Source of the DNA: Actinomycetes bacterium
GTDB lineage: Bacteria > Actinomycetota > Acidimicrobiia > Spongiisociales > SHLN01
Length of the DNA: 37,623 bases
Direction of reading: 5' to 3'
NCBI GenBank assembly: GCA_024638625.1
Contig: JAHEJY010000013.1
Coordinates: 1-37,623, forward strand
Made by a program: the position numbers and the translations under genes. Positions 3 to 28,149 of this stretch are shown piece by piece (the first letter of the stretch is position 1; the number at the start of each line of letters is the position of its first letter). The notes beneath the pieces were generated by a model. It had not been told where the DNA came from and searched no databases. It saw nothing but the letters and a program-made list of their open reading frames with translations.

Positions 3-2012
3 GGTATTGGGCTGAGCCTCCTCTTCGTGGATGGGCCCGCAGGTGCCCACGAGGTGCCGCAAGATCCGACCGACGAGCTCGGCATCCTCACCGGAGCCAA
101 CTATCTCCGCGACCACAGTCTTGGGCCCGACGTGATGGAGGTGTGGATTTGCGAGGTGGCCAACCCCGGAACCAAGCAGAAAGTCGAGTTGACTCCCGAG
201 GTTGTGGCCACGTCGCTCAATACCGAACTGCCGCCCTATTTCAACTGGGTGTCTAACGGCCGGAAGTCGCTCTCGTTTATCCCGGCCGGAGAGGTCACGA
301 TTCCGAATGAAGACGTTGAGGCCTGTTTCAACGCGGTAGTCGCAGTGGCGGCCAACGATGGCATTTCATCGAATGGCGGTGTCATGGTGTTCGATGTCAG
401 AACCGATGACGCCGCCGGTGGCCCGGGGGACGGGCCTTCTTTTCCGGCAAACGGCCGGGTGGCCTTCTACGGGGCCAACCATGTTCGGAACATCAGCAAC
501 CTCGACCGGGCGTTCCTGGCACACGAGATCGGCCACACCATGGAGATGCCGCACTCGTACACCGGACTCACGACGATCGAAGGCCGGGTGTGGGAATACG
601 ATGACGCCATCGAGATCATGTCCGGAGCCGATTCGATGGTGGGCACGATGGCCATCAATCGATATGGAGCCGGATGGATCGACCCATCCCAGGTCGTGGT
701 CTACGACCAGACTGCGATCGAGGTGGGCTTGGGACCCGTGGGCTATGCGGGCCCGCAGTTGATCGTGATACCCGGGCCGGACCCTCACACGTTTGCGGTC
801 CTCGACGTTCGTGTGCTCAAAGATTTCGATGCGGGCTTGCCGGACGAGGGCGTGACAGTACACGTCATGGACGAGCGGGTCGAAGCGTGTTCGACAACCG
901 AGTTCCCACACTGCTTTGGGGCCGAGCGGTTGGTTCGCCCGTTCGAGTCATTTCCCTATAGCACCCAGCACGTCCATGATGTGGGAGAGGGCTTCACGGT
1001 CTACGGCATCGAGGTAGGGGTGACAGACCGTGTCGGAGACGTCTTCACGGTGGCCGTGGGGGATGTGCCGCTCGCATTTCCGAACGGAGCCCGGCTGGAA
1101 TTGAACACACTCACCGAGACCGCCATGACCCTCAGCTGGCCCGCCGCGTTCTCCTCCGAGGACTACGAGGTTTCTGGAGCCGGGACCGAGATCGTCACAG
1201 ACAGTTCCATCACCCTCACAGGGCTCACGCCCGGATCTAGCTACGAGATCAACGTCGTTGCCCGAAAAGAAGCAGAGCGAACCGACCCGCTCACGCTGTC
1301 CGTAAGGACGCTTGCGACAGGTGGTTCTCGGATCGGGCTCCAGAATTCGGGATCCGGCTTCTGGTCTCTGGTGAGAAACGATGCCAGTCTCAACGGCTTC
1401 TACTACGGCAACCCGGGTGACCTGGCGATCGCATGTGACTGGAATGGGGACGGTATCGACACGGTCGGCCTCTATCGACCTACGGACGGATTCTTGTATC
1501 TACGCAATTCGAATACCCAGGGCCCCGGCGACACCGAGATCTTCTACGGAGAACCGTCGGACATTCCCGTGTGCGGTGACTGGAACGGAAACGGCATCGA
1601 GACGATCGGCGTGTATCGGCCCCGCAATTCGACGTTCTACCTTCGGAACTCAAATACACAGGGCTTCGCCGACATCCAGTTCATCTTTGGCAATCCGGGT
1701 GATGCCCCTTTCGCCGGAGACTGGGATGGCGACGGTATCGATACTGTCGGCCTATATCGCCAATCGACGGGATTCGTTTATATCACCGACACCAACGCGT
1801 TCGGTGTCGCCGATTTCGATGCGTTTTACGGCAATCCAGGCGACCGCTTCGTGGTTGGCGACTGGGACGGCAATGGACGCGATTCATTTGGAATCTTCCG
1901 CCCTGGCGACACCACCTTCTACCTCTCGAACACCGTTGGCGACGCTATCGCCGACATCGAAATCACGGCCGGAGACCCCAACACGGTTCCCCTGGCCGGT
2001 CTCTGGGACTGA
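3..2012 (+). CDS. Secreted metzincin-like metalloprotease with FN3 domain and C-terminal FG-GAP/VCBS-like repeats (5' truncated by window edge)
   Basis: Frame is open to the left edge (GIGLSLLFVDGPAGA resembles the end of a signal peptide). HEIGHTMEMPHSY zinc motif (HExxHxxxxxH), possible Met-turn EIMSG, FN3-like segment LSWPAAFSSEDYEVSG...LTGLTPGSSYEINVVA, then about 48-aa repeats FYGNPGD..GDWDGDGIDTVGLYR. Confidence 0.8.
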   Translation, partial: GIGLSLLFVDGPAGAHEVPQDPTDELGILTGANYLRDHSLGPDVMEVWICEVANPGTKQKVELTPEVVATSLNTELPPYFNWVSNGRKSLSFIPAGEVTIPNEDVEACFNAVVAVAANDGISSNGGVMVFDVRTDDAAGGPGDGPSFPANGRVAFYGANHVRNISNLDRAFLAHEIGHTMEMPHSYTGLTTIEGRVWEYDDAIEIMSGADSMVGTMAINRYGAGWIDPSQVVVYDQTAIEVGLGPVGYAGPQLIVIPGPDPHTFAVLDVRVLKDFDAGLPDEGVTVHVMDERVEACSTTEFPHCFGAERLVRPFESFPYSTQHVHDVGEGFTVYGIEVGVTDRVGDVFTVAVGDVPLAFPNGARLELNTLTETAMTLSWPAAFSSEDYEVSGAGTEIVTDSSITLTGLTPGSSYEINVVARKEAERTDPLTLSVRTLATGGSRIGLQNSGSGFWSLVRNDASLNGFYYGNPGDLAIACDWNGDGIDTVGLYRPTDGFLYLRNSNTQGPGDTEIFYGEPSDIPVCGDWNGNGIETIGVYRPRNSTFYLRNSNTQGFADIQFIFGNPGDAPFAGDWDGDGIDTVGLYRQSTGFVYITDTNAFGVADFDAFYGNPGDRFVVGDWDGNGRDSFGIFRPGDTTFYLSNTVGDAIADIEITAGDPNTVPLAGLWD

Positions 2013-24753: not shown

Positions 24754-25824
24754 TCAGGCGGAGATGGTTTCGGTTCGGCGCGTTTGACGCTGGAGATAAG
24801 GCCGGTCGACAGTGAGGCCAGTACCCAGGCCGGTGGGAATCTCGAGACCATGTTTGCCGGGCCTCCAGCCGGGCTTCACGATGTCGCGGCCCCATTGTCC
24901 GAAATAGTGGGCGAGCGGTCCCGCATCGAGGCCGGTGGCTGCCGCGAGCAGTGCTGCCTGTCCGGCGGCCAGCAGCGTCGAGCCCCCGGGTTCGAGCACG
25001 CCGCTAAGGCCTTCCTCCATGCAGTATGTGGCAACGTCGAGGAGCGGCCGAAAACCTCCGAACTCGTTCGTGTCGAGCATGAGCCCCGCGATGCTCGAGT
25101 GGGCTGCCTCGGCAACGTCGCTCCAGTGCCGGGCCCTCAACCAGACGTCAATGCCGCCACCCGAAGCCAGCCCTCTGGTCGCCTCTGTATCGTCCTTCGA
25201 AAACGGATCGACCAGCGCCTCAATGCCAACCCGCTCGATGGTTTTGAACACGACCGCCTCGGTCGGGTGGAAGGATCCGCCCGCATCTGCGATCACCCTT
25301 GTGGCGGGAAACGTCGACCGGAGCATGGAGATCGGATCGATGTCCCAACCGGGAGTGATGGACACGTGAAGCGCAGTTATTCCTCGATTGATCTCGAAAT
25401 CTGCGATTTTTTCGAGTTCTTGCAATGTATCTTTGATTCCGATTTTGGCACGGAACGTGAGATTTTTCGACCCCCCTCCAAGCGCGTCGAGCATTCGGGC
25501 CGAGTGGGTTCGGGCGTAGAGATCCCACAGGGCCAGTTCAAGTGCCATCTTGGTTTTGGGATGGCCTTTGAGCCCTTCCAGGCGAACACCGGTACCGGAC
25601 GGATGGACCGGCGGTGCTTCGAGTAGTACCGGGATCGCATGTTGAGTGGCAAAAAGCCATGCGCTGTCTGCGAATTCGACACCATGCCATGGTGTGGTTC
25701 CGACGGCAATCTCGGACCAGCCGTGATGACCGTCGTAGGTGGCTTGTACGATCAAAGCCTCACCCCGGGAACCGTCAGGTCGCGTGAGGACGACTTCGTG
25801 CAGAGTGATCGAATCGAGATGCAT
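24754..25824 (-). CDS. Enolase-superfamily (NSAR/OSBS-like) protein with missing catalytic residues; predicted pseudoenzyme
   Basis: Fold-level similarity to NSAR/OSBS: KGHPKTKMALELALWDLYAR, GIKDT, PGWDIDPISMLRSTFP, IADAGGSF, FGGF. The lysines and most metal ligands are replaced. Start at 25824 supported by upstream AGGAG. Confidence 0.8.
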   Translation of the reverse strand: MHLDSITLHEVVLTRPDGSRGEALIVQATYDGHHGWSEIAVGTTPWHGVEFADSAWLFATQHAIPVLLEAPPVHPSGTGVRLEGLKGHPKTKMALELALWDLYARTHSARMLDALGGGSKNLTFRAKIGIKDTLQELEKIADFEINRGITALHVSITPGWDIDPISMLRSTFPATRVIADAGGSFHPTEAVVFKTIERVGIEALVDPFSKDDTEATRGLASGGGIDVWLRARHWSDVAEAAHSSIAGLMLDTNEFGGFRPLLDVATYCMEEGLSGVLEPGGSTLLAAGQAALLAAATGLDAGPLAHYFGQWGRDIVKPGWRPGKHGLEIPTGLGTGLTVDRPYLQRQTRRTETISA

Positions 25825-25905
25825 CGCCCGGCTCCTGGCTGTACCGTCCATCAGTAAACGCCCATTGTGGTCGGGGTGCAATGAGTTACGTGACTAAATA
25901 GGCAA

Positions 25906-25954
25906 GGTCGGGTTGGCGCGACCAGGTTTTCCGATAGTATTCGAGTCCCAACCC
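25906..25954 (+). ncRNA. Candidate structured 5' leader element of metK (hairpin plus possible pseudoknot)
   Basis: GGTCG(25906-25910)/CGACC(25919-25923) stem; loop GGTTGG (25911-25916) complementary to CCAACC (25948-25953); lies upstream of an intrinsic terminator. Confidence 0.45.
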
Positions 25955-25962
25955 ACCACCAG

Positions 25963-25999
25963 CGCGACCCCGGCATCTTCTGTCGGGGTTGCGTTTTTT
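25963..25999 (+). terminator. Intrinsic terminator in the metK leader, just upstream of the start codon
   Basis: CGCGACCCCGGC-ATCTTCT-GTCGGGGTTGCG-TTTTTT: 12-bp stem (two G-U), 7-nt loop, six T; ends 20 nt before the GTG at 26020. Confidence 0.85.
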
Positions 26000-26019
26000 C
26001 CGGGTTGGAGCTCTGAGCA

Positions 26020-27186
26020 GTGCCTAATCTCGCAACCATGAACTACTTCACGACTGCTCGACCCCCCTTCTCGCCCCCGGTGGAGTTCGTGGAGAGAAAG
26101 GGTCTCGGGCACCCGGACACGATTTGTGATGCCGTCGCCGAAGAGCTGTGCCGTTACCTGGCGCGCGGCTACATGGAACGTCTCGGCACGGTTCAAGCAT
26201 TCAACGTAGACAAAGCGATTCTGGCTGCCGGCGCGGTGGACATCGGGTTCGGGGGCGGCGTCCCGGTAACCAAGACAAGGTTGATCGTGGTCGGCAAGGC
26301 CGATCTCACGCAGTGGACTCCTGAACGTGATGAGCTGATCAAGGTCGTATCCACCAAGCTCCAGGAATTATTGCCAGATGCCAACCTGGAAGAGGCATTT
26401 GACGTTGACGTATGGCTCAGCCCGTCGTCCGTCGACCTTTCCGCAGTCGTCTCAGGACGGGGGGAAGATGATGTTCCGTTGGCAAATGACACGTCGTTCG
26501 CGGCCGTGTCGCTGCCGCGTTCGGCACTGGAAGATCTGGTGTTTGCCATCGAGTCGGAACTCAACAGCGGTGCTTTTCGTTCAAAGGTGCCGGTGGGACG
26601 CGACATCAAAGTCATGGGGGCGCGGAGCGACGGATTCGAGGTAACGGTGGCAGCCCCTGTCATGGCCACCCAGGTGGATGGGCCCGCCGACTACAAGGAA
26701 GCCGTGCTGGCGGTAGCCGATCGTGCCAAGGAGATCGCGGCCCATTTGGTAGGTCACGCCGATATTTCGGTAAACAAGGCAGACAACGACGACACGCCCT
26801 ACCTCTCGCTGACAGGGTCCAGCGCCGAGCAGGGCGATGATGGCCAGGTGGGAAGGGGTAACCGATTCGGGGGGCTCATCACCCCTTATCGGGCGATGAG
26901 CCTGGAGGCCGCGTGCGGCAAGAATCCTGCTGCCCACGTCGGTAAGACGTACCATGCGGCTGCGTGGGATATATCGGAACGTGTCGTTGCCGAAACGGGT
27001 GCTACCGAAAGCACGGTTCGATTGTTGTCGCAGATCGGTAGTCCCGTGACCCAGCCTCTCGCCGCCCATATCGAGTACGCAGGCGACGCCGACGACAACC
27101 TCATCATCGACATTGCACAGGAAGCCCTCAGCGATTGGAATGGTATACGCGATCGGCTCATCGACGGGGAGTACATTCTCTACTGA
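26020..27186 (+). CDS. Archaeal-type S-adenosylmethionine synthetase
   Basis: VERKGLGHPDTICDAVAEEL, VDKAILAAGAVDIGFGGG, SLTGSSAEQGDDGQVGRGNRFGGLITPYRAMSLEAACGKNPAAHVGKTYH match the archaeal MAT family rather than canonical bacterial MetK. GTG 26020 has GGAG 9 nt upstream; ATG at 26038 is the alternative. Confidence 0.9.
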   Translation: MPNLATMNYFTTARPPFSPPVEFVERKGLGHPDTICDAVAEELCRYLARGYMERLGTVQAFNVDKAILAAGAVDIGFGGGVPVTKTRLIVVGKADLTQWTPERDELIKVVSTKLQELLPDANLEEAFDVDVWLSPSSVDLSAVVSGRGEDDVPLANDTSFAAVSLPRSALEDLVFAIESELNSGAFRSKVPVGRDIKVMGARSDGFEVTVAAPVMATQVDGPADYKEAVLAVADRAKEIAAHLVGHADISVNKADNDDTPYLSLTGSSAEQGDDGQVGRGNRFGGLITPYRAMSLEAACGKNPAAHVGKTYHAAAWDISERVVAETGATESTVRLLSQIGSPVTQPLAAHIEYAGDADDNLIIDIAQEALSDWNGIRDRLIDGEYILY

Positions 27187-27678: not shown

Positions 27679-28149
27679 TCAGACGTAGGTCATCTCCGTG
27701 CTGATGTCAATGGCTGCTTCGATGCTGCGGGCCACGGGACACTTGCTCTGGTGGAAGCCCATCACCCGTTCAACCTTTTCGCGTTCCTCGTCAGTAGATA
27801 TCCCTTTGAGCTCGTACGTGACGTGGATGCGTTTGATGACGAGCACACCATCTTCTGCTTCGACGTCGCCAACCGTGTTCGAAATCAGATTGCCGCCGCT
27901 TGCGTTGATCTTGCGCGCCTCCAGCGCGCCTCCCAGGGTGCCGGTCAGTCAACCGGCCGCGGCCGCCACGACCCAATCAATCGTGGTGGCATCAGGCGGA
28001 AAGTCGTCCATCGAGACGCCATAGTGCTCAGCGATATCGGAGTGGACGCCAAAGGTGTGATGCTCGTCTTTGGCCGGCAACCAAACATGGCGAATCGGTC
28101 CCCTCACCCGCTCGACCCGAATGTGCGCCTGATATTTGATATCGCCCAT
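27679..28149 (-). CDS. OsmC-family protein, predicted selenoprotein (in-frame TGA at 27949-27951 read as Sec)
   Basis: Manual translation through the TGA gives MGDIKYQAHIRVERVRGPIRHVWLPAKDEHHTFGVHSDIAEHYGVSMDDFPPDATTIDWVVAAAAG-U-LTGTLGGALEARKINASGGNLISNTVGDVEAEDGVLVIKRIHVTYELKGISTDEEREKVERVMGFHQSKCPVARSIEAAIDISTEMTYV, a full 156-aa OsmC protein with U in place of the first conserved Cys. Confidence 0.8.
27913..27929 (-). promoter_or_regulatory. Candidate bacterial SECIS hairpin downstream of the OsmC UGA
   Basis: On minus: GCGCGC-TGGAG-GCGCGC, 6-bp perfect GC stem and 5-nt loop, stem beginning 19 nt after TGA. Confidence 0.6.

What the first reader, a model, noticed from the sequence alone, without database searches (positions are those of the whole stretch)
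25895..26040. Candidate novel riboswitch or attenuator upstream of archaeal-type SAM synthetase
Seen: a strong intrinsic terminator (25963-25999) lies within the leader, just before the metK start. Upstream is a hairpin GGTCG/CGACC (25906-25923) whose loop GGTTGG is complementary to CCAACCC (25948-25954). A second GGGTTGG (26002-26008) overlaps the GGAG Shine-Dalgarno and could pair with the same CCAACCC. The leader can therefore form competing structures affecting termination and ribosome access. Knowledge: SAM synthetase genes are frequent SAM-riboswitch targets (SAM-VI is reported upstream of Bifidobacterium metK). I could not match this leader by eye to SAM-I/IV, SAM-II, SAM-III or SAM-VI.
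Basis: partly seen in the sequence, partly recalled or inferred. Interest (0 to 1): 0.82.

Follow-up and report, generated by a model that had tools for sequence, protein, structure and literature searches.

The report
Ultraconserved small-RNA candidate upstream of metK
Just before a SAM-synthetase gene in an uncultured actinobacterium lies a 79-base stretch kept letter for letter in the only known sister species, which looks like a tiny separate RNA gene ending in a strong terminator rather than a switch in the gene's own message, because that message most likely starts exactly at the start codon.

Summary
The terminator (25961-25999) is real: 15 bp, -26.9 kcal/mol, six U, far above shuffles. 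It lies inside a 79-base block (25927-26005) identical in the only other genome of the genus, although the surrounding locus is just 71% identical. In 58.8 kb of DNA compared between the two genomes, the only non-coding runs longer than this are a tRNA-Leu and the SRP RNA. Nothing in Rfam, or in 395 genomes of the class, matches it convincingly.

The 5' hairpin folds no better than shuffled sequence, and neither GGGTTGG is kept in the sister genome. The GTG start and its GGAG Shine-Dalgarno are not kept either; homologues start at ATG 26038. That ATG has no Shine-Dalgarno and carries TAATCT 7 nt upstream, the mark of leaderless genes in this genome (56 of 470 genes against about 4 expected). 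metK transcription therefore most likely begins downstream of the terminator.

Best reading: a separate small-RNA gene (a -10 box TAGTAT, about 53 nt, a C-rich tail, a terminator) between a divergent enolase-superfamily gene and a leaderless metK. A factor-dependent attenuator is not excluded. No transcript data exist; the sRNA's target is unknown.

The parts
25927..26005 (+). 79-nt block identical in the only other genome of the genus (G325:C380:4067-4145)
   Evidence: 79/79 identity in a locus of 70.6% identity; next longest run there is 23 nt; found in no other genome searched
25935..25940 (+). candidate -10 box TAGTAT, in the form CGA-TAGTAT, of a short transcript starting about 25945-25948
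   Evidence: second-best promoter score of the intergenic region in both genomes; fits TANNNT; inside the identical block. Inferred; no start-site data
25945..25999 (+). proposed small RNA of about 52-55 nt: C-rich unstructured 5' tail GUCCCAACCCACCACC, then the terminator hairpin
   Evidence: fold -26.9 kcal/mol, z -6.55; no start codon for a leader peptide and no gene upstream on this strand. Transcript inferred
25961..25999 (+). intrinsic terminator: 15-bp stem, loop UCUUC, U run
   Evidence: z -6.9; one of about five real strong U-tailed terminators found in 801 kb of this genome, and the only one not following a gene
26025..26030 (+). -10 box TAATCT of the metK promoter, 7 nt before ATG (leaderless arrangement)
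   Evidence: TANNNT at gap 6-7 in 56 of 470 genes against about 4 expected; best promoter score in both genomes; conserved in the sister
26038..27186 (+). metK, archaeal-type methionine adenosyltransferase (PF01941), starting at ATG 26038
   Evidence: Pfam E 1e-95; start codon at the same alignment position in nearly all homologues
24754..25824 (-). divergent enolase-superfamily gene (o-succinylbenzoate synthase / epimerase-like)
   Evidence: PF13378; menC-type match below cut-off; shows that the terminator does not end an upstream gene
   Evidence: not conserved; region folds no better than chance
   Evidence: sister reads GGGTCGAAA; the conserved start is ATG 26038

Best explanation
The block is a self-contained small-RNA gene. 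RNA polymerase starts at about 25945-25948 from the -10 box TAGTAT, makes about 53 nt (a 16-nt C-rich unstructured tail followed by a 15-bp terminator hairpin) and stops at 25999. metK has its own promoter (-10 TAATCT, 26025-26030) and is transcribed leaderless from ATG 26038, so the terminator is not part of the metK message. The RNA most likely works in trans by pairing of its C-rich tail with G-rich sites. Because it ends 26 nt before the metK -10 box, its transcription could also occlude the metK promoter. Shown: the conservation, the terminator, the absence of a gene to terminate, and the leaderless signature. Inferred: the transcript, its start, and its mode of action.
For: Identity of 79/79 against a 71% background. 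In 58.8 kb of compared DNA the only longer non-coding runs are tRNA-Leu (110 nt) and SRP RNA (91 nt). The block ends at the terminator and begins just before a -10 box. Strong U-tailed terminators are rare in this genome, and the four other real ones lie about 20-46 nt after stop codons; this one follows no gene. Leaderless signature of metK and absence of a Shine-Dalgarno in both genomes. The same TANNNT box and missing -35 motif are reported for mycobacterial promoters (PMC3898074).
Against: No transcript data. Only two genomes carry the block and they do not differ inside it, so there is no covariation. A TANNNT box alone is not significant in 214 nt of intergenic DNA. No convincing target: complement sites show only a slight excess over the reversed control, and no gene start in the sample pairs over more than 8 bases. 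Six bases after the U run are also conserved, which an isolated sRNA does not require.
Confidence: 0.55

Rival explanations
1. Attenuator of metK controlled by a trans-acting factor: transcription from TAGTAT makes a short leader that ends at the terminator unless a protein or another RNA bound to the conserved C-rich stretch lets the polymerase through; the leaderless promoter is a second start.
For: Terminator 39 nt before the metK ATG in both genomes, same strand, no other gene to end. The C-rich stretch before the hairpin is invariant, as a binding site would be.
Against: No conserved antiterminator: what could pair with the terminator's 5' arm lies upstream of the block and differs in the sister. 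No Shine-Dalgarno for a leadered message. Strong leaderless signature. The homologues in the related family have no terminator before metK.
Confidence: 0.24
2. DNA-level or insulating element: the block protects the leaderless metK promoter from stray transcription out of the divergent intergenic region, or holds an operator over the -10 box, with no function for the RNA itself.
For: The terminator ends 26 nt before the metK -10 box. The sequence around TAGTAT is a partial palindrome (CGATAGTATTCG) (sequence).
Against: Insulation does not require an invariant loop, stem and C-rich tail; terminators normally drift with compensating changes (general knowledge).
Confidence: 0.13
3. Metabolite-sensing riboswitch as first proposed: GGGTTGG copies compete for CCAACCC and set termination and ribosome access in answer to SAM or a relative.
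For: metK is a frequent SAM-riboswitch target (general knowledge; SAM-VI in Bifidobacterium, PMC6914780 and PMC11274715, listed). The letters can pair in the window.
Against: No Rfam hit. The 5' fold is no better than chance. Both GGGTTGG copies are lost in the sister while CCAACCC is kept. Ribosome-binding site and GTG start not conserved. About 16 nt of RNA before the terminator leaves no room for an aptamer if the start is at 25945.
Confidence: 0.05

Closest known systems
Intergenic trans-acting bacterial small RNAs with their own promoter and intrinsic terminator (including C-rich ones such as the actinobacterial 6C RNA; general knowledge)
   Same: Compact promoter-RNA-terminator unit in an intergenic region, C-rich unpaired stretch, no ORF, strong conservation
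   Different: About 53 nt is very short; one hairpin; no Rfam match; known in one genus only; no target identified
SAM-VI and the other SAM riboswitches upstream of metK (Rfam)
   Same: Position upstream of a SAM synthetase gene
   Different: No sequence or structure match; metK appears leaderless; the constrained part lacks room for a known aptamer
Intrinsic-terminator attenuators (factor-dependent or leader-peptide types)
   Same: Terminator shortly before the start codon, on the same strand
   Different: No conserved antiterminator and no leader peptide start codon; a promoter lies between the terminator and the gene
Leaderless genes of Actinobacteria (TANNNT about 7 nt before the start codon; PMC3898074)
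   Same: metK box TAATCT at gap 7, no Shine-Dalgarno, no -35 motif detectable in the set
   Different: Nothing essential; seen here in an uncultured Acidimicrobiia lineage by sequence only

Membership tests
SAM riboswitches (Rfam SAM classes) | Match to the covariance model of a class | tested here: not met
   No match in the window at gathering scores; best leader score 22.8 bits to an unrelated family whose cut-off is 55
SAM riboswitches (Rfam SAM classes) | Ligand binding | not testable with these tools
   Needs in-line probing
Riboswitch / transcription attenuator in general | Lies within the mRNA of the regulated gene | tested here: inconclusive
   Indirect test only: metK carries the leaderless signature with its -10 box downstream of the terminator, which speaks against it; a second upstream start is not excluded
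Riboswitch / transcription attenuator in general | Conserved mutually exclusive structures | tested here: not met
   Partner segments changed without compensation in the sister genome
Intrinsic terminator | G+C-rich hairpin followed by a U run | tested here: met
   15 bp, -26.9 kcal/mol, z -6.9, six T
Independent small-RNA gene | Own terminator with no gene to terminate | tested here: met
   Upstream gene is divergent; no ORF
Independent small-RNA gene | Own promoter | tested here: inconclusive
   TAGTAT is the second-best scoring box in both genomes, but the motif is short and the -35 model was no better than shuffled controls
Independent small-RNA gene | Conservation of the RNA above its surroundings | tested here: met
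   79/79 identical in a 71% locus; same tier as tRNA and SRP RNA
Independent small-RNA gene | A discrete transcript exists | not testable with these tools
   No RNA data for this uncultured lineage
Leaderless gene (metK) | TANNNT box 6-7 nt before the start codon and no Shine-Dalgarno | tested here: met
   TAATCT, gap 7, in both genomes; no Shine-Dalgarno

The most novel reading that the evidence does not exclude
The invariant C-rich stretch plus terminator is a new class of metK control element: either a factor-bound attenuator working alongside a leaderless promoter, or a SAM-pathway small RNA of a kind not yet described.
Probability: 0.2. Interest if true: 0.65.

Novelty: new member of a known kind. 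Interest (0 to 1): 0.4.

Why it matters
If it is transcribed, this would be a small RNA conserved at the level of tRNA and SRP RNA that no RNA library lists, found next to the only SAM synthetase gene detected in its genome. It also shows that a terminator in front of a gene need not be a riboswitch where genes are leaderless, a trap for leader-based searches in Actinobacteria.

Tried and rejected
(1) Rfam match: none. (2) Copies or relatives of the block elsewhere: 59 relatives, the whole order (138 genomes) by BLAST and 395 genomes of the class by a covariance model gave only generic terminators, coding stretches and the 3' end plus terminator of a tRNA-Val gene. (3) tRNA origin: TTCGAGTCCCAACCCACCACCA resembles a tRNA 3' end with a doubled CCA, but ARAGORN finds no tRNA and no similar copy exists; left as coincidence. 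(4) Leader peptide: the open frame through the block has no usable start codon and does not stay open at the same place in the sister. (5) Trans targets: no clear candidates. (6) A -35 model from leaderless promoters was no better than shuffled controls and is not used as evidence. (7) SAM-IV riboswitches in relatives: none. (8) A viral-contig scan for the block: none.

Full report
What is there. The window lies in a draft genome of an uncultured Acidimicrobiia bacterium (G000, 2.8 Mb, 87% complete; the closest named record is JABDOU010000303.1). metK at 26038-27186 is an archaeal-type methionine adenosyltransferase (PF01941, E 1e-95), and no canonical bacterial metK was found in this genome. 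Upstream, on the other strand, is an enolase-superfamily gene starting at about 25824. The 214 nt between the two starts hold the reported element.

The terminator is real. Bases 25961-25999 fold into a 15-bp hairpin with a U run, -26.9 kcal/mol, z -6.9. No gene on that strand ends before it. Strong U-tailed terminators are rare in this genome: six hits in 801 kb. One is inside a gene, four lie about 20-46 nt after a stop codon, and this one follows no gene.

The element is extraordinarily conserved. The genus holds one other genome (G325). Over the 6.2-kb locus the two are 70.6% identical, yet bases 25927-26005 are identical at all 79 positions; the next longest run is 23. Comparing 801 kb of this genome with 355 kb of the other gave 58.8 kb of matched DNA at 75% identity. 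The longest identical runs are a tRNA-Leu (110), the SRP RNA (91, Rfam RF00169), this block (79) and the 5' end of a proteasome-type ATPase gene (75). With p = 0.75 per site, the chance of a run of 79 anywhere in such a comparison is about one in a million (own arithmetic). The block therefore ranks with housekeeping RNA genes. Gene conversion is unlikely because neither genome holds a second copy, though both are incomplete.

The 5' hairpin at 25906-25923 lies upstream of the block. In the sister its GGGTTGG reads GAGTTTG and the later GGGTTGG reads GGGTCGA, while CCAACCC between them is unchanged. The 5' region folds no better than shuffles (z -0.79). The large favourable energy of the whole leader comes mostly from the terminator.

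metK appears leaderless. Among 28 homologous loci, including this one, the start codon falls at the same place as ATG 26038 in all but three, which start one codon earlier. In 470 genes of this genome, TANNNT is 6 or 7 nt before the start in 56 cases, against 1.8 per position in the background. About 94% of such boxes are therefore real. The same architecture is described for Mycobacterium tuberculosis, again without a -35 motif (PMC3898074). metK has TAATCT at gap 7 in both genomes and no Shine-Dalgarno. Scanning both intergenic regions, the two best boxes are TAATCT and TAGTAT (25935-25940) in each. TAGTAT sits at the left edge of the block and would start an RNA of about 53 nt that ends at the terminator.

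Interpretation. The simplest account is two transcription units: a short non-coding RNA (promoter TAGTAT, C-rich tail, terminator) and a leaderless metK. What the RNA does is inferred. A C-rich unpaired tail suggests pairing with G-rich targets, but none stands out. Interference with the metK promoter 26 nt downstream is possible. A factor-dependent attenuator cannot be excluded without transcript data. A SAM riboswitch of the proposed form is unlikely.

Comparison with the known. No Rfam family fits. Searches of 59 relatives, of 138 genomes of the order, and of 395 genomes of the class by covariance model found no convincing relative. The archaeal-type metK genes of a related family have short leaders with TANNNT boxes, often a Shine-Dalgarno, and no terminator. 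The element is thus confined to one genus on present data, and with two identical copies covariation cannot be tested. I file it as a candidate new small-RNA gene, a new member of a known kind.

Noticed in passing
window 26038-27186; family and class searches: Archaeal-type SAM synthetase seems to have replaced the canonical one in this genus (no PF02773 in either genome), while three genomes of the sister genus carry the canonical enzyme; PF01941 is patchy in the class (38 of 395 genomes over the cut-off), mostly in one other family.
   Followed up: partly
801 kb of the window's genome: Leaderless genes look common: TANNNT 6-7 nt before the start in 56 of 470 genes.
   Followed up: yes
801 kb of the window's genome: Strong U-tailed terminators are very rare (about five real ones in 801 kb); several follow genes expected to be highly expressed (pilin-like, substrate-binding, lysine/alanine-rich protein).
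   Followed up: partly
window 25940-25961: TTCGAGTCCCAACCCACCACCA resembles a tRNA 3' end followed by a second CCA; no tRNA is there.
   Followed up: partly
window 27890-27942 and L228 7789-7863: Two other unusually long identical runs between the sister genomes (53 and 75 nt) lie in or at the start of likely protein genes; the second is the 5' end of a proteasome-type ATPase gene.
   Followed up: no
L246 about 650-810, minus strand: Directly after a terminator, a repeated unit resembling GTCCCCCACNNAGTGGGGGAAAGTACCGCAGCCCGTAGGGCTGGGGTAGGG.
   Followed up: no
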